Shown here: positions 6,447-22,199 of the stretch, in pieces | How the letters are laid out: each line of letters starts with the position of its first letter | Position numbering within the stretch: position 1 is the first letter of the stretch | DNA from: an uncultured Roseibacillus sp. | GTDB taxonomy: Bacteria > Verrucomicrobiota > Verrucomicrobiia > Verrucomicrobiales > Akkermansiaceae | NCBI GenBank assembly: GCA_937949965.1 | Contig: CALFBF010000071.1 | Location: 1-34,487 of the forward strand | Length of the DNA: 34,487 nucleotides | Direction: 5' to 3' | Notes under the pieces: generated by a model | Databases searched by the model: none | What the model was told of the DNA's origin: nothing | Seen by the model: the letters and a program-made list of their open reading frames with translations, nothing else | Translations under genes and position numbers: made by a program

Positions 6447-7175
6447 ATGGACCGCTTCTTTCTTCCTCCAGACCAGTGGACTACGACATCGCTGTCGCTC
6501 ACGGGGGAGGAGGCACATCATGCCGTGCGCGTGATGCGTAAGAAGGTTGGCGACGAGGTGGAAGTCTTCGACGGGCAAGGTCGATGGGCTCGTGGCGAAG
6601 TGGCGGAGGCTCGTAAAAGCAGTCTCGTAATCGTGGTGAAGGAGGAGGGGCAGAGTGAACCTCTTTCTCCACAACTCACCCTAGCAGTAGCTGTTCCTAA
6701 GGGTAAGACGATGGACCTAATCGTTCAAAAGGCTGTCGAGCTCGGAGTGAATCGTCTCCAGCCTCTCCAAACTACTAATAGCGTCGTAAAAGTCGATCCC
6801 AAGGAAGCAAAGGAGAAGTCTCGGAAGTGGCAGCGTGTTGCATTGGAAGCTTGCAAACAATGTGGACAAAACTTTTTGCCGCAAGTAGCTCCGATCGCGA
6901 CTTTGCGAGATTATGTGACGGCCGAGAAAGCTGAGCATCGTCTCATCGCCTCGCTAGCCCCTGGTGCTCGGAATACGAGGATGACCTTTAAAGATTTGCC
7001 AAAAGAAATGACCGATTTGGCACTCTTAGTCGGACCTGAAGGAGATTTCACTAATGAAGAAGTAGAAGAGGCTCTGAACCGACAGTTTCTTCCTGTAACT
7101 CTCGGGAAGATTGTTCTAAGAGTAGAGACTGCGTGCTTCTTTCTCGTCTCGGTAGCGAGTAGCTATTTCAGGTGA
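6447..7175 (+). CDS. rsmE: 16S rRNA (uracil1498-N3)-methyltransferase, RsmE family
   Basis: HHAVRVMRKKVGDEVEVFDGQG...VQKAVELGVNRLQPLQT...EACKQCGQNFLPQV...LLVGPEGDFTNEEVE...LRVETA. Confidence 0.93.
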   Translation: MDRFFLPPDQWTTTSLSLTGEEAHHAVRVMRKKVGDEVEVFDGQGRWARGEVAEARKSSLVIVVKEEGQSEPLSPQLTLAVAVPKGKTMDLIVQKAVELGVNRLQPLQTTNSVVKVDPKEAKEKSRKWQRVALEACKQCGQNFLPQVAPIATLRDYVTAEKAEHRLIASLAPGARNTRMTFKDLPKEMTDLALLVGPEGDFTNEEVEEALNRQFLPVTLGKIVLRVETACFFLVSVASSYFR

Positions 7176-7373
7176 CAAGAATTGTTAAGTTTTTGCTGTT
7201 CGATTATCGTCTTAGGTAATTTTTGTATTAAGGTTGTCAATGGTTGCCGAAATTTTATGAAGCCTTCTTGTTTGGTTTTTTTAAACAAATCCTTGTCGGT
7301 TTTCGTTTTTTTTGTAATCTGGCTTTGTTCTAGTTTCGGAATCATCCGTAATTTTAATTAAAGGCACCTCCGA

Positions 7374-7520
7374 TAACCTCATTCCAAGAAAATACTCCCT
7401 AATTTCCTCAACTCTTTGTTGGTTCGAAATCTGATGAACTCGTTCAGCAGACTTTCAAACCGCCTCGATTTGAGAAAGTTTGGAATCATTTTTCCGAAAA
7501 CAGGTTCGTGGAGGCACCCT
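7374..7520 (-). repeat. Intergenic 147-nt repeat, copy A (paired with 22053-22199)
   Basis: Ungapped alignment to 22053-22199 with 110/147 identical positions by manual count; exact blocks include TAACCTCATTCC and TTCCTCAACTCTTT. Confidence 0.85.
7379..7489 (-). CDS. Putative small basic protein, 36 aa (MIPNFLKSRRFESLLNEFIRFRTNKELRKLGSIFLE)
   Basis: Minus-strand ORF inside repeat copy A. Conserved against copy B with many synonymous codon differences. Confidence 0.45.
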   Translation of the reverse strand: MIPNFLKSRRFESLLNEFIRFRTNKELRKLGSIFLE

Positions 7521-7605
7521 AAAGTGATTCAATCGTTGCTTAATTAAGTTGCGTTAACACGTAAGCGGTAAATCCGAATTAATTTTAAAAGTTTAATCCA
7601 GTAAA

Positions 7606-10600
7606 ATGTCTCTCTTTATTCGTAATTCTCTAAAATTAGTAGGATTGTCCATTCTGCTACTTGTTTCAGCAAATGCGCAACATGACGAGCACGAAGCGGT
7701 GCTCAATTTAGCAGATGCAGCAGATGCAACTCATACTGCGGTAGTAAATGGTCGATGGTTTGATGCGACGACTTGGAGTGGAGGACGGGTTCCTGATGCA
7801 AATGCGAGAGTTTACATCCCAGAGGGGATTCGCGTTACGTATCAAGGAGTGTCTTCAGTACCGTTAAAAACGTTACGAATTGATGGAACGCTTTTTTTCG
7901 CTTACTGGCGGAACACAAGAGTCGTTGTTGACACGATTCTTGTTTCTCATGAGGGAACTCTCATTATCGGTGATCGAACAAATCCTATTGGTAGCGCGTT
8001 TACAGCTGAGATTCAGTTTGCAGACAACGGTGATATCGATACGGATTGGGATACTGAACTCCTCTCTCGTGGACTTGTGAGCCTCGGAAGAGTCAATATC
8101 TACGGTAGCAAGAAGGATTCTTTTCTTAAAGTTGCCCAAGCTCCAATGGCTGGAGCAAATCGATTGATTTTATCAAGAATTCCTGAAAATTGGCAGGTTG
8201 GCGATACTATCGTCATTACTGGAACTCATAAGCGGGGTTACGATGTCGATGAGCTGCGAACCGCAGCGGATTCAGATTGGAGAGGAACCGAAGATGAAGT
8301 TGTTACGATTACCGAAGTTAATGATAATGAAATTATTATTGATCGGCCACTACAATACGATCACGACACACCAGCGTCAGATTTAAGGGCTTATGTTGCT
8401 AACCTTTCTCGAAATGTCGTATTTTCTAACGAGGGAGGAAGAGATTTGCCAGTGCATCAACGAGGTCATGTTATGCTAATGAATAGTGATTCTGACGTTC
8501 GTTACGCAGAGTTCGACGAACTCGGTCGGACTGATAAATCTGTGGTTTCAGCGCCAGTAGAGACATTCGACCCAGTAGACTCTACAAGTAATGCACAGGG
8601 ACGTTATGCCATCCATCTTCATCGTACAGGGATTACTTCTTGTGGCAGAGCCTTGGGCGCGTGTGATTGCCTGCAAAGTCCAATTTACTTAGTGGGTAAT
8701 GCTGTGAACGGCTCACCTGGTTGGGGAATGGTGCAGCATTCTGCCAATGCCAATTTTACTGAAAATGTTGTCTATAACGCTTTTGGAGCCTCTTTCGTAG
8801 CCGAGAGTGGAAACGATGTTGGTAATTGGCTGCGTAACATTGCAATTAAGTCTCGTGGTGTTGGTTGGGGGATTCTGAAAGCACAGGATACTGTTGTAAT
8901 TAGAGATGCGGCCCGCACTGGTGATGGGTTTTGGTTTAGTAGTCGCTTAGTGGAAGCTTCAGAAAACGTGGCGGCTAATACAACGCATGGATATTCGTAC
9001 GTTTCTCGAACAGGAATCCAGGCAGATGGTTCAAATGATTTACTGGAAGCAAAATCTATCGATCAACCCGAAACTGTGCGAGGTGGCTCAAGGACTCGAC
9101 AAACGACCCCAAATATTCCCGAATTTCGTGATAATGAGGCTTTTGGAAACCAAACTAGTTTTCAAGCGATTCGAAATGCAGCAGCTCAAAATCATGATTT
9201 ACGCTCAGTGATTAAGAACTTTACGGCATGGGAATCATTTCGTGGGGTTATAGGTCGTTACTCTCCTCACTATACACTTATTAATTTGCGCCTCATCGGG
9301 ACAAATACCCCTCATCCAAATACTGATGGTCCACCGGTAGGGGTTGTCTTTGAGAGAAAGGCATTTGACTGGACTATTAACGGTGCTGACATTGAGAATT
9401 TTGAAATTGGAGTTAAGGCAGCAGTCTCTACACGAGTGTTACGAAGGCTCGACTTTAGAGTTGGAATGAATTTTATTGATATGTCGTTTACTGATGTTGA
9501 TCAGCACTACACGAGAATTAATTCAGAAGGGCATTTTTTCCACGATTCTTCAGATTTGGTGCCCAATCGCTTAGCTGTTAGTTATCGTCCCATTGAACCA
9601 ATTGGGTTTGGAGAGGATCGTGATCTTGATTGGTTAAAGGTTGATTCAATTGGTGTTATTGACCGTGTTTGGGAGTTTGATCGAGCTAATTTAGACTGGA
9701 ATCGGATGACGAGTCAGATTCTTAATAACGATGGTTATTATCGAGATGTAAATGGAGAACCTTTTATAGTTGTCGAAGACTTAGTAGCAGATCGAGCAAC
9801 TGGTGATATGGAAAAACTCCTTTTACCGATTTCTCTTAATTTTACTGATGCTGAACTTTCTCGGTATGATGATAATGGTCGTTTGACTTTTGAAGCACCT
9901 GCTCCAGTAGCACTTGGAGACCAGTTCAGAATTCAAGTAGATACCCCACAAGAACTTGATTTAATAGGTAATGATCATGATCCTGATGGTGGTCGGATCT
10001 GGTTGAGTGGGACCATTCAGCCAACGTATGGAGATCTTTTTCTTTCTGACGACAATAAGGTGCTCTACGTTCCAGATATTGGTTACAGTGGAGATGATTT
10101 TTTCAGCTATTGGGTTCGAGACGAAGAAGGTAATCTCACTCGTGGTGAAGTTTCCTTACGGGTAGGGTCAGGTGCAATTCCTGAGGTGAAGGATACCGAC
10201 TTTTTTGAACCCGCAAACTTCGTCGATATTCTTAATGATAATATCCGACCGTTAGCTATTCAGAATCGTGAGGCGATTCCTACCGGAGAAACTACCATTA
10301 CAGTCGACCCGGTTGAAAATGATCACGACATTAATGGAGATGAACTTTTTCTAACAACAGTTCATCGTGGTCTAGGGATTGCCGCTATTGACATCCGATT
10401 GGATAATGAAGGGGTTGTAACTGCAACTACATCTTCAACCAGCGCCAGTGGGGGAGTTGAGTTTTTCTATGCCGTCAGCGATGGAGATAGCGTCGATGGT
10501 GCCGATGATGGTTATTTCCCAATTTTCATTGGCAGAAATAATGCGAGAACAGCCCCTGGACAAGAAATGTTTGGACCTAATATTGGTAACGAAGCAGGAA

Positions 10601-11832
10601 GTTACCTCCCTTATCGAATTGAAGGGCCAACCGGTTCAATTGAACATTTGGGGGTTTACGGTGAAAGCGAATTATCGAGAATTCGGGTTGAAAGTGATGA
10701 CTATGAAATAGGTTCGGTTGCCTTCTACGTTAATGGCGTATTAGAAAGAACAGATAATAATCCTCCTTTCATGTTTGTAGACGCTGATTTGGAGTTTGGT
10801 GAGAATGTTTTGCGTATCGTTGCCACGAGTGAGAGTAATCAGGGAGGATTCTTTCTCTTCGATGATCGGAAGAAAATTCAGATGGCAACACCGATTCCTC
10901 CTCTAGTACCAGTTGCAGATAGTTTTGTCCGTGGAGGGCGATTTGGGGATATCAATTATGGCGCAGACAGTGTGTTGACCACTAAGATGGATGATCGAAA
11001 CGAGGACTTTGAGCGTAGATCATATCTTAGATTTGATGTTCCCCGGTTCTCTGGATCAGACGTTGTTAGTGCCACCTTACGTTTGCGAGCAGAACGCTCG
11101 AACCTGTTGGGCGATATTCACTCAGTTTATGCAGTTAGTGATGATAGTTGGGGTGAGACTGCAATTACTTGGAATAATCGCCCTGATTTAGGTAGTTTTC
11201 TTAATTCTAGTCCTGTTCCGGATATTGATGGTTGGTTCGAAGTTGATGTGACTGATTTTGTTCAGACTGAACTAGGCAATGACGGCATTGTGTCCTTCGC
11301 AGTCGAGTCAGAAGGGCAAGAGTTGATCCGCTATCATTCTCGCGAAGCATCGACAGAGAATCAGCCTCAACTTATTATCGAGACCTTAGCTGGATCTGTT
11401 CCTGCTGCTCCATCATATCCAGACTGGGTGGCACGTAATGGTCTTACTGGTCGGGACAGACGTGCGTTAGCGACTCCGAATAATGATGGGATTCCAAATC
11501 TATTGAAATATGCATTTAATATTGAAGATGTATATGCTCCTCCGGCGCGCATTAGTCCGGGCCAGAGACAGAGTGGGTTACCCAATATCTTCCTTTCTAA
11601 TGGAGTTAACAAGCGCCTTAGGGTCTCTTTCATCCGAAATAAAAATGACCCGACTCTCACTTACCGAGTTCAATTTTCTTCAACTTTGAGAGCGGGTGAT
11701 TGGAGTGAACTAGGAAGAGAGATTTCGGTAAGTTCTATTAATAGCGATTGGGAACGAGTGGTTGTTCAAGATAATTTCTCGACCGCTACCGCAAATGCTC
11801 GTTTTGGTCGTGTCCTAGTGGAGCAAAATTAG
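7606..11832 (+). CDS. Large secreted multidomain protein: G8 domain, beta-helix-like region, cadherin/Ig-like regions, DNRLRE-type domain
   Basis: Signal peptide MSLFIRNSLKLVGLSILLLVSANA. G8 region NGRWFDATTWSGGRVPDANARVYIPEGIRVTY...LKTLRIDGTL. DNRLRE-like PVADSFVRGGRFGDINYGADSVLTTK...RSYLRFDVP...WGETAITWNNRP. Confidence 0.85.
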   Translation: MSLFIRNSLKLVGLSILLLVSANAQHDEHEAVLNLADAADATHTAVVNGRWFDATTWSGGRVPDANARVYIPEGIRVTYQGVSSVPLKTLRIDGTLFFAYWRNTRVVVDTILVSHEGTLIIGDRTNPIGSAFTAEIQFADNGDIDTDWDTELLSRGLVSLGRVNIYGSKKDSFLKVAQAPMAGANRLILSRIPENWQVGDTIVITGTHKRGYDVDELRTAADSDWRGTEDEVVTITEVNDNEIIIDRPLQYDHDTPASDLRAYVANLSRNVVFSNEGGRDLPVHQRGHVMLMNSDSDVRYAEFDELGRTDKSVVSAPVETFDPVDSTSNAQGRYAIHLHRTGITSCGRALGACDCLQSPIYLVGNAVNGSPGWGMVQHSANANFTENVVYNAFGASFVAESGNDVGNWLRNIAIKSRGVGWGILKAQDTVVIRDAARTGDGFWFSSRLVEASENVAANTTHGYSYVSRTGIQADGSNDLLEAKSIDQPETVRGGSRTRQTTPNIPEFRDNEAFGNQTSFQAIRNAAAQNHDLRSVIKNFTAWESFRGVIGRYSPHYTLINLRLIGTNTPHPNTDGPPVGVVFERKAFDWTINGADIENFEIGVKAAVSTRVLRRLDFRVGMNFIDMSFTDVDQHYTRINSEGHFFHDSSDLVPNRLAVSYRPIEPIGFGEDRDLDWLKVDSIGVIDRVWEFDRANLDWNRMTSQILNNDGYYRDVNGEPFIVVEDLVADRATGDMEKLLLPISLNFTDAELSRYDDNGRLTFEAPAPVALGDQFRIQVDTPQELDLIGNDHDPDGGRIWLSGTIQPTYGDLFLSDDNKVLYVPDIGYSGDDFFSYWVRDEEGNLTRGEVSLRVGSGAIPEVKDTDFFEPANFVDILNDNIRPLAIQNREAIPTGETTITVDPVENDHDINGDELFLTTVHRGLGIAAIDIRLDNEGVVTATTSSTSASGGVEFFYAVSDGDSVDGADDGYFPIFIGRNNARTAPGQEMFGPNIGNEAGSYLPYRIEGPTGSIEHLGVYGESELSRIRVESDDYEIGSVAFYVNGVLERTDNNPPFMFVDADLEFGENVLRIVATSESNQGGFFLFDDRKKIQMATPIPPLVPVADSFVRGGRFGDINYGADSVLTTKMDDRNEDFERRSYLRFDVPRFSGSDVVSATLRLRAERSNLLGDIHSVYAVSDDSWGETAITWNNRPDLGSFLNSSPVPDIDGWFEVDVTDFVQTELGNDGIVSFAVESEGQELIRYHSREASTENQPQLIIETLAGSVPAAPSYPDWVARNGLTGRDRRALATPNNDGIPNLLKYAFNIEDVYAPPARISPGQRQSGLPNIFLSNGVNKRLRVSFIRNKNDPTLTYRVQFSSTLRAGDWSELGREISVSSINSDWERVVVQDNFSTATANARFGRVLVEQN

Positions 11833-19074: not shown

Positions 19075-22038
19075 TTATTTGCAGAGGAAAGCGTCTAGGT
19101 TCAGGAGGATATTAGCCACGACGGTGAGAGAGGCGAGTTGGGCCGCATTTTCGTCAGTAGCAGGGGTGGGAATCGTTCCTGCAAGTTCAAGTGCACTCGT
19201 AAGATCGTTCTCGTATTCGTGTAACGACTTTTCATAAAGTTCGCTCAGAATGGTGACTTGATCAGAAATTGGTTCGTCTAACAAAACAAGTCTTAAGCCA
19301 TGTCGAATTTGTTCTTCGACAGTGTCCGAATGAGATTTCATCTTACGTGCCAGTGCCTGCGAAGCTTCGACGAAGACGACATCATTGAGAGTCATGAACG
19401 ATTGCAAGGGAGTATTGGTGCGGAAGCGGCGCATCACGCAAACATCTCGCGAAGCCATGTCAAAGGTCTCAAAGAGTGGGTGTGGGTTACTCCGTTTTAA
19501 GTAAGTATAAAGTGCACGTCGGTAGCGATCTGTTCCTTGGCTTTCAACCCAGTGAGTGTATCCCGTGAAGGCGTTGGCAAATTTCTTAATCGGACTCGGA
19601 GGATAGACAGGTGGGCCGTAGAGTTCTTGATTGAGAAGCCCTGAAACGGCAAGGGCTTGGTCTCTCACCACTTCGGCAGAGAGTCGGTAACGAGGTCCTC
19701 GTGAAAGGAGAGTATTCCGAGGGTCGCGTTCCAGTCGCTCAGGACTCGCTTGTGAAGATTGTTGGTAAGCGGCGGAAGTGACGAGAGTTTTGAGAAATTT
19801 TTTGATGTCCCAGCCTCCTTCTTGCAATTCAACCGCAAGCCAATCCAGTAACTCGGGATGAGAGGGAAGAGTCCCTTGTGTGCCGAAGTCTTCCTCGGTT
19901 TCGACAATACCGATGCCAAAGAGACGGGCCCAGTAGCGATTCGCCGCTACCCGAGCAGTTAGAGGGTTTGTGTCTGCCGTGATCCACTGCGCGACTCCGA
20001 GGCGGTTCTTAGGAGCGTCGTTTGGTAATTCACCGAAGGCTGCTGGCAGACTGGCTGCTACTTTTTTTCCTAGTTGGAGAAAAGATCCTCGCGTCATGAT
20101 GTGGGTTTCTCGTTGCCGTTTTTGAGGTAACTCGACAGTGACCGGAACACGTATCGTAGCATTCAAGGTGTCTTGCATTTCGACGAGTTCACGTCCGAGC
20201 GGGTGCAGTGTTCTTTTCTCAAAACGTGAGGCGGCTTGCGGTGCGCTAGTTACGGAGAGGCGTATCCGGCCAGCAGTGACTCGGGGCAAGCTACTCTGGA
20301 AGTGGAGTTCGACTTCGAGAGTTGAGCCTCTAGGTGCGTCGATTGGTTTATCTAGGTCGAAGACTGCAATGCGGCGTGCTTTGAACCCTTGTTTAGGATG
20401 ATTCATTGCCCAGCCATTACGATGGGCCTCTTCACCAATGATGTTAGTGATTGAGTAATTGGGCTGTGAGTAATCAGCAGTAGCATGTGAAAAGTAGCGG
20501 CGTTCTCTCTGGCCGTCAGGAGTGACCACGAAGAGTTGGATATGGTTTAGAAAGACACTCCCGCTTGGTGAGCGGCCAATCATGTCATTGTGGCGAAGAT
20601 CGGGAATGAGTTCTAACTGCAAAGCTGTCGTCGTTTCTGCAGGAGCTGGTGCACGGAGGGTGTAAGTCGCGTTAGGAGGATTACTTCCTCCTGCTAAAAT
20701 AGAACGATCTGGTTTAGGGCTAAAAGTGACTCCATTCGTTGCGGTAGACTGATCAAGGGAGAGTGCGGTCCATGGAGACGTCTGTTCTGCTGCCTGCTTA
20801 ATTTGGGTGATTCGATTTTTCAGAACCTTTCGTTCCTTTTCTGTTCCCGGCGGAGTCACTGCCATCCGAGGGCGATCATCTCGGTGATCTCGATCGGCAC
20901 TCTGATTGAAGAAGGCATAGAACTCATAATACTCCTGAATAGTAATAGGATCGTATTTATGAGTATGGCATTCTGCACAGCGGATGGTTAAGCCCATCGT
21001 AGCATTGACTGTGGTGCTAAGCCGATCCTTGACTGCGATAGTACGAAATTCTTCATCATTCGTTCCTCCTTCGTTATTGTTAAGGGTGAGACGATGAAAA
21101 GCAGTAGCTAGCCGCTGATATTCGTCCGCTTCCGGGAGGAGATCACCAGCCACTTGTTCAGTGATGAATTGATCATAGGGCATGTTGTCGTTGAAGGCTT
21201 TGATCACCCAATCACGCCATGGCCAGATGTCGCGATGCTCGTCACCGGAGTAGCCAACGGTATCTGCATAGCGAGCGAGATCCATCCACATCGAGGCCCA
21301 ATGCTCGCCATAGGCAGGGGAAGCAAGGAGGCGATCTACGGCCTCACTCACTGCTTGAGCTGAGTTTTCATGGTAACTTTTCTGGAAGTCTTTGCTTTCT
21401 TCCCAAGAAGGAGGGAGACCTGTTAGATCGAGGGAAAGCCGTCGTAGCAGCTCTGAGGCTTTCGCTGGGGCTGAGGGCCGGAGGTTATTTTGCTCCAGTG
21501 CTGCGAGGATGAAGGAATCAATCTCGTTTTTACCCCAATCTGTTGTCGTGACTTCGGGTGCTGCTGGACGGGTAGGGGGAACGAAAGCCCAGTGAGTCTC
21601 ATAATGCCCTCCCTCTCGAATCCACTGCTTTAGCAAGGCGAGCTCTTCTTTGTTCAATGAGTGCCCATGCTCTGGTGGAGGCATCACTTCATCAGGATCA
21701 TTGGACTCGATTCGCTGAATCATGAGGCTGGCATCAGGATCGCCAGGAACAATACTGGCATCGCCGAATTCAGTCGAAGTTGCACCCTCGAAAGTATCTA
21801 ACCGCAAATCGGCCTTACGGTCTCCGGGATCAGGTCCATGGCACCCGATGCAATTCTTGGATAAAATCGGTCGGATCTCAAAATTAAAAGAAACCTCTTT
21901 ACTGTTAGCAGCAAGCGAAGAAGCGAGCCCAAGTAAGGCGATAAAGGATAAACGTATCAACATGGGTAATGAGATCGCAAAGTTTGAGGGGGTGCATAGT
22001 TTTACGGAAATTGTGCAATAGTCTGTCAGAAATAACAT
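19075..22038 (-). CDS. PSD1 / DUF1549-DUF1553 planctomycete-type cytochrome c domain protein
   Basis: NCIGCHGPDP heme-binding CxxCH; LDLTGLPPSWEE; RWMDLARYADT-like segment; ECHTHKYDPI; DFGTQGTLPSHPELLDWLA. Signal peptide suggests the true start is MLIRLSF, about 25 codons in. Confidence 0.9.
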   Translation of the reverse strand: MLFLTDYCTISVKLCTPSNFAISLPMLIRLSFIALLGLASSLAANSKEVSFNFEIRPILSKNCIGCHGPDPGDRKADLRLDTFEGATSTEFGDASIVPGDPDASLMIQRIESNDPDEVMPPPEHGHSLNKEELALLKQWIREGGHYETHWAFVPPTRPAAPEVTTTDWGKNEIDSFILAALEQNNLRPSAPAKASELLRRLSLDLTGLPPSWEESKDFQKSYHENSAQAVSEAVDRLLASPAYGEHWASMWMDLARYADTVGYSGDEHRDIWPWRDWVIKAFNDNMPYDQFITEQVAGDLLPEADEYQRLATAFHRLTLNNNEGGTNDEEFRTIAVKDRLSTTVNATMGLTIRCAECHTHKYDPITIQEYYEFYAFFNQSADRDHRDDRPRMAVTPPGTEKERKVLKNRITQIKQAAEQTSPWTALSLDQSTATNGVTFSPKPDRSILAGGSNPPNATYTLRAPAPAETTTALQLELIPDLRHNDMIGRSPSGSVFLNHIQLFVVTPDGQRERRYFSHATADYSQPNYSITNIIGEEAHRNGWAMNHPKQGFKARRIAVFDLDKPIDAPRGSTLEVELHFQSSLPRVTAGRIRLSVTSAPQAASRFEKRTLHPLGRELVEMQDTLNATIRVPVTVELPQKRQRETHIMTRGSFLQLGKKVAASLPAAFGELPNDAPKNRLGVAQWITADTNPLTARVAANRYWARLFGIGIVETEEDFGTQGTLPSHPELLDWLAVELQEGGWDIKKFLKTLVTSAAYQQSSQASPERLERDPRNTLLSRGPRYRLSAEVVRDQALAVSGLLNQELYGPPVYPPSPIKKFANAFTGYTHWVESQGTDRYRRALYTYLKRSNPHPLFETFDMASRDVCVMRRFRTNTPLQSFMTLNDVVFVEASQALARKMKSHSDTVEEQIRHGLRLVLLDEPISDQVTILSELYEKSLHEYENDLTSALELAGTIPTPATDENAAQLASLTVVANILLNLDAFLCK

Positions 22039-22052
22039 AGAGAGGCCTTTGC

Positions 22053-22199
22053 TAACCTCATTCCGAGATAATGCGGCCTTACTTCCTCAACTCTTTACTG
22101 GTTTGAAACCTGGTGAATTCGTGCAAGAATTTTCTAAATCGTCTCAGTTTGAGAAAATTTAGGATCATTTTTTCGAAAGCAGATTGCCGGAAATACCCT
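22053..22199 (-). repeat. Intergenic 147-nt repeat, copy B (paired with 7374-7520)
   Basis: Ungapped 110/147 identity to copy A. Confidence 0.85.
22079..22168 (-). CDS. Putative small basic protein, 29 aa (MILNFLKLRRFRKFLHEFTRFQTSKELRK)
   Basis: Minus-strand ORF in repeat copy B, 20/29 residues identical to the copy A ORF. Confidence 0.45.
   Translation of the reverse strand: MILNFLKLRRFRKFLHEFTRFQTSKELRK

What the first reader, a model, noticed from the sequence alone, without database searches (positions are those of the whole stretch)
7374..7520. Hidden 147-nt intergenic repeat pair (copy A) shared with 22053-22199, gapless over its whole length
The segment between rsmE and the G8 exoprotein aligns base for base, with no indels, to the segment upstream of the DUF1549/1553 gene 14.7 kb away. 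By manual count 110/147 positions match, and most mismatches look like transitions. Similarity starts at TAACCTCATTCC and fades after CCCT on both sides. No annotated feature explains it. Absence of indels over diverged DNA implies a selected element (coding, structural RNA or both) rather than decayed junk.
Basis: seen in the sequence. Interest (0 to 1): 0.75.

Follow-up and report, generated by a model that had tools for sequence, protein, structure and literature searches.

The report
Miniature hairpin transposon of IS5 type
The two matching stretches are old copies of a 160-base non-coding 'hitch-hiker' transposon, present at about 40 or more places in this bacterium's genome and probably moved by an IS5-type transposase made elsewhere: a well-known kind of genomic parasite, here in a family that appears not to have been described.

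Summary
Both copies belong to a dispersed family with about 40 distinct sites in the genome and 91 end-sequence sites against 2 in the control. The true unit is 160 bp, GGGCACCTCCGATAACCT...AGGTTACCGGAGGCACCC, a near-complete imperfect palindrome. It is flanked by 4-bp direct duplications resembling YTAR, mostly TTAA: 15 of 43 exact against 5.4 expected. The same ends bound IS5-family transposase genes: a 1312-bp IS and a decayed copy in this genome, a 1270-bp IS in G255, and an IS in G272 with an identical 18-bp terminal repeat. The element is therefore an IS5-derived MITE. Sister subfamilies occur in 9 of 261 genomes of its family, probably Akkermansiaceae. Single copies decay without excess compensatory change, have unbiased flanking genes and show no coding bias. 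Few indels therefore do not show selection on each copy. Across genomes the hairpin does covary, so its foldback may matter for the mobile lineage. This is a new family of a known kind.

The parts
7362..7519 (+). Copy A of the 160-bp MITE (element proper, GGG/AGG...CCC)
   Evidence: Family alignment and paired terminal repeats
7358..7361 (.). Left target-site duplication of copy A (TTAA)
   Evidence: the right side is TAAA, 3 of 4 matching
7520..7523 (.). Right target-site duplication of copy A (TAAA)
7362..7393 (+). Left terminal inverted repeat and subterminal stem of copy A
   Evidence: 97% match to the consensus end
7489..7519 (-). Right terminal inverted repeat of copy A
   Evidence: 80% match to the right-end consensus
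22041..22199 (+). Copy B of the same MITE, an older copy with a degraded left end
   Evidence: no intact target duplication (ATAG / TTTA)
6447..7175 (+). Upstream neighbour of copy A: RsmE-type RNA methyltransferase (not part of the element)
   Evidence: PF04452, 1.7e-45
7606..11832 (+). Downstream neighbour of copy A: G8-domain / CBM96 exoprotein (not part of the element)
   Evidence: PF10162, PF24517
19075..22038 (-). Neighbour of copy B: PSCyt1-DUF1549-DUF1553 protein, transcribed away from the element (not part of the element)
   Evidence: PF07583, PF07587, PF07635

Best explanation
[quoted passage not shown] It is a 160-bp non-coding palindromic DNA with about 18-bp terminal inverted repeats (GGGCACCTCCGRTAACCT) that an IS5-family DDE transposase, supplied in trans by an IS with the same ends, recognises. 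The transposase inserts it at YTAR-like sites (mostly TTAA), making 4-bp target duplications. Shown here: the common ends, the duplications, the dispersed copies and the IS5 transposase genes bounded by the same ends in several genomes. Inferred: mobilisation in trans, and that a formerly active IS close to the decayed copy at C99:41578-42215 drove the spread. After insertion the copies sit mostly between genes and decay neutrally; internal deletions give a 72-74 bp class and intermediates. The two copies in the window are one moderately young and one old insertion.
For: There are about 40 distinct genomic sites with shared borders and 91 terminal-repeat sites against 2 in the reversed-pattern control. 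Of 43 paired elements, 15 carry exact 4-bp direct duplications against 5.4 in shuffles (maximum 12 of 2000 shuffles), and only the 4-bp register shows identity at every position (0.70-0.84); non-TTAA exact pairs include CGAA, TTTA, TTGA, TTCA, AGAA, TCAA and TAAA. The target composition is T-T/A-A-A, and YTAR is the published IS5 target motif (PMC10359306). The IS at C118:4-1315 encodes a 353-aa IS5 transposase (NF033581 5.4e-77; PF01609, PF05598) between GGGCACCTCCGAGAAC and GGGCACTTCCGGTAACCG. The decayed IS5 copy at C99:41578-42215 starts GAGCACCTCCGACAACCTCATTCCAAGAA, 27/29 identical to the MITE end. In G272 an intact IS5 ORF has the exact 18-bp repeat GGGCACCTCCGGTAACCT 73 bp upstream. 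In G255 a 1270-bp IS with both repeats sits after CTAA.
Against: No recent transposition event or empty site was demonstrated. The intact IS in this genome shares only the terminal ~18 bp with the MITE, not its interior. The element interior is conserved at 67-79% over full length across five genera, more than end recognition alone would seem to need. Three of the IS copies (C118, G255:C235, G272:C107) touch contig edges, so their full ends and duplications are partly unseen.
Confidence: 0.93

Rival explanations
1. A dispersed structural RNA or regulatory hairpin (terminator, mRNA stabiliser, RNase III site), with each copy kept by selection for its stem-loop.
For: The consensus folds into a single long hairpin (-64.7 kcal/mol, z -8.2). 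Across genomes 25 of 56 pairs have changes on both sides, with a covariation score of 0.354 against 0.194 shuffled and at most 0.135 slid. Paired sites vary less than unpaired ones within the genome (0.111 vs 0.161 per site).
Against: Within the genome compensatory doubles match chance (20 vs 18.2) and the energy excess is small (mean z -0.7). One-sided changes give G.U and A.C about equally (118 vs 108). Flanking gene orientation is balanced (15/12/12/12). No Rfam hit. Target duplications and shared IS ends are not expected of an RNA gene.
Confidence: 0.05
2. A short coding element or conserved peptide gene.
For: One frame of the consensus is open through all 160 bp.
Against: Only 10 of 26 copies keep that frame open, and third codon positions carry the fewest substitutions (185/184/150).
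Confidence: 0.01
3. A REP/REPIN-type palindrome mobilised by a RAYT (Y1 HUH) transposase.
For: An intergenic palindrome dispersed in many copies; GTAG-type REPs are reported in a verrucomicrobium (PMC3733652).
Against: Target duplications of 4 bp are present, the ends are 18-bp inverted repeats starting GGG with no GTAG or CGTC tag, and the same ends bound DDE IS5 genes.
Confidence: 0.01

Closest known systems
SM3A, a 164-bp MITE of Sulfolobus (PMC3718332; its transposition depends on ISC1058, which I recall as IS5 family)
   Same: Nearly the same size, inverted-repeat ends, no coding capacity, dispersed, dependent on an IS transposase in trans
   Different: Archaeal host and different sequence; the present family is a full-length palindrome in Verrucomicrobiales with several diverged subfamilies
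IS5-family insertion sequences (NCBIfam NF033581, PF01609 + PF05598)
   Same: Shared terminal repeats and 4-bp YTAR-like target duplication
   Different: The element lacks a transposase gene and its interior does not derive visibly from the intact IS in this genome
Palindromic bacterial MITEs such as QMITE2 of Coxiella (PMC10969869), and Correia/NEMIS and ERIC (from memory)
   Same: About 100-200 bp, hairpin-forming, intergenic
   Different: Different ends, target duplication and cognate transposase

Membership tests
MITE | Short (<500 bp) repeat with terminal inverted repeats | tested here: met
   160 bp, repeats of about 18 bp extending into a full palindrome
MITE | Target-site duplications | tested here: met
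   4-bp direct duplications, 15/43 exact vs 5.4 expected
MITE | Non-coding | tested here: met
   No codon-position signal; stops in five of six frames
MITE | Dispersed in many copies with common borders | tested here: met
   About 40 sites, 91 end sites vs 2 control
MITE | Ends shared with an autonomous element | tested here: met
   IS5 genes at C118 and C99 of this genome, and in G255 and G272
MITE | Mobilisation in trans by that transposase | not testable with these tools
   Needs an experiment
IS5 family (as cognate mobiliser) | IS5-type DDE transposase above curated cut-off | tested here: met
   NF033581 258.9 bits (cut-off 140), PF01609, PF05598; relatives 269.5 and 255.6 bits
IS5 family (as cognate mobiliser) | 4-bp YTAR target | tested here: met
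   Position counts T73/C8, T49/A21, A62, A72/G8 of 86; motif from PMC10359306; position 2 is looser than T
REP/REPIN | GTAG/CGTC-tagged short palindrome without target duplication | tested here: not met
   Duplications present; consensus ends GGGCACC
Known Rfam structured RNA | Covariance-model match | tested here: not met
   No match up to E=1 in window 7300-7620

The most novel reading that the evidence does not exclude
The whole 160-bp foldback, not only the terminal repeats, is selected in the mobile lineage (for example as a cruciform or single-strand hairpin that helps IS5-type transposition or protects the element), which is why its arms have co-varied across five genera while resident copies decay freely.
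Probability: 0.25. Interest if true: 0.45.

Novelty: new member of a known kind. Interest (0 to 1): 0.24.

Why it matters
It explains a group of otherwise unexplained intergenic sequences in these Verrucomicrobiales genomes, gives annotators the ends and the cognate transposase, and warns against reading gap-free similarity of intergenic repeats as evidence of function. The covarying stem across subfamilies makes testable whether hairpin shape matters for IS5-type mobilisation.

Tried and rejected
RNA gene: rejected for single copies. RNA-strand selection: the minus strand folds more stably in 28 of 29 copies, but with a strand-symmetric pairing the G.U excess is small (233 vs 180) and absent within the genome (118 vs 108), so it is left as unproven. 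Coding: rejected. Orientation bias or terminator role: none seen. An exact-pattern scan of genome contigs with the left end of this subfamily found nothing; a right-end pattern found 12 stretches in Verrucomicrobiales/Akkermansiaceae MAGs. The C40 and C55 long-distance end pairs enclose ordinary genes, not a transposase. The three sampled genomes of the same genus gave no match. Literature searches for a described MITE in this group gave none, which is not proof of absence.

Full report
Observation. The two segments align at 110/147 without gaps and 28 of 37 differences are transitions, so the hand count was exact. Searching the window's own genome (2.73 Mb, 166 contigs) with copy A gives 41 matches besides itself, about 40 distinct sites in all, most at 75-90% identity; copy B itself scores E=2.6e-23. 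The similarity is real and belongs to a family.

Anatomy. Aligned with flanks, the copies share sharp borders. The consensus unit is 160 bp, from GGGCACCTCCGATAACCTCATTCC to GAAAGCAGGTTACCGGAGGCACCC. It is an imperfect palindrome over its whole length, and the consensus with flanking TTAA folds into one hairpin of -64.7 kcal/mol (z -8.2 against shuffles). A pattern for the ends alone finds 91 sites in the genome against 2 for the reversed control. Of 43 paired elements, 25 are 158-162 bp, six are 72-74 bp and most others lie between, consistent with internal deletions.

Target duplication. Immediately outside the ends lie 4-bp direct repeats. Fifteen of 43 pairs are identical against 5.4 in shuffled pairings (maximum 12 in 2000), mean identity is 3.0 of 4 against 2.39 (sd 0.09), and registers of other lengths show no comparable identity. 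Exact pairs that are not TTAA, such as CGAA, TTTA, TTGA, TTCA, AGAA, TCAA and TAAA, argue against TTAA being simply part of the element. The site preference (T, T/A, A, A) resembles YTAR, the published IS5 target (PMC10359306).

Cognate transposase. The end sequences at C118:4 and C118:1315 bound a 1312-bp IS with a 353-aa IS5-family transposase. At C99:41578-42215 a decayed IS5 copy, with broken transposase frames, starts with the MITE end for 29 bp (27 identical). In other genomes carrying the element, G255 has a 1270-bp IS5 element with GGGCACCTCTAAGAACC / GGGCACCTCTAAAAACC ends, and G272 has IS5 genes preceded by GGGCACCTCCGGTAACCT, which differs from the MITE right-end consensus of this genome only at the variable fourth and fifth bases and equals the end found in many sister copies. 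G261 and G248 have remnants in the same arrangement. The link between element and IS5 transposase is thus seen repeatedly. That the transposase moves the element in trans is inferred.

Distribution. Full-length relatives at 67-79% identity occur in 9 of 261 genomes of the family (this one included) and 5 of its 16 genera; none was found in the three sampled genomes of the same genus. An exact right-end pattern finds named Verrucomicrobiales/Akkermansiaceae MAGs only; the family assignment of the window is inferred from these.

Does each copy do something? Twenty-six full-length copies differ from their consensus by 405 transitions and 111 transversions but only 19 indel bases, so scarcity of indels is the family's normal mutation pattern. 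If every copy needed its stem, changes on both sides that restore pairing should exceed chance: 20 observed, 18.2 expected. Paired sites are somewhat less variable than unpaired ones (0.111 vs 0.161), and mean folding energy is slightly better than simulated decay (z -0.7, 18 of 26 negative), driven by a few copies such as C59 that may belong to older subfamilies. One-sided changes produce G.U and A.C mismatches about equally (118 vs 108), so there is no sign of selection on an RNA strand. Gene orientation around the copies is even: two tandem classes 15 and 12, convergent 12, divergent 12 (genes called there by a simple longest-ORF rule). There is no coding signal.

What remains unexplained. 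Between genomes the stem covaries strongly: 25 of 56 pairs have changes on both sides, 92% of cells are paired, and the covariation score is 0.354 against 0.194 shuffled and 0.059-0.135 slid. Either the foldback is needed by mobile copies, or the two arms are corrected against each other from time to time. The within-genome result argues against strong correction or selection in resident copies. These possibilities cannot be separated with sequence alone.

Verdict. The finding is a real dispersed element, an IS5-derived MITE family, apparently undescribed in this group in the papers searched. It is ordinary in kind, with one mildly interesting feature, the conserved foldback.

Noticed in passing
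L106:1-379 and L107:1-379 (G000:C104, G000:C111): Two contigs begin with a shared 379-bp repeat (93.7% identical) that ends at the outer end of a full MITE copy; the left border is cut by the contig starts. No third copy was found, so it may be a two-copy unit with the MITE at its edge.
   Followed up: partly
G000:C46:1906-2065 and 2348-2507 (L098): Two nearly consensus copies in direct orientation 282 bp apart, the youngest-looking in the genome.
   Followed up: no
   Followed up: partly
window 21963-22038: The ORF called for the DUF1549/1553 protein may start too early: an ATG near 21963 followed by a signal-peptide-like stretch looks more likely, which would place copy B wholly in the 5' intergenic region.
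   Followed up: no
G000, 72-74 bp class (e.g. L039, L041, L046): A discrete short size class retaining both ends, suggesting a separately amplified mini-subfamily rather than random deletions.
   Followed up: no
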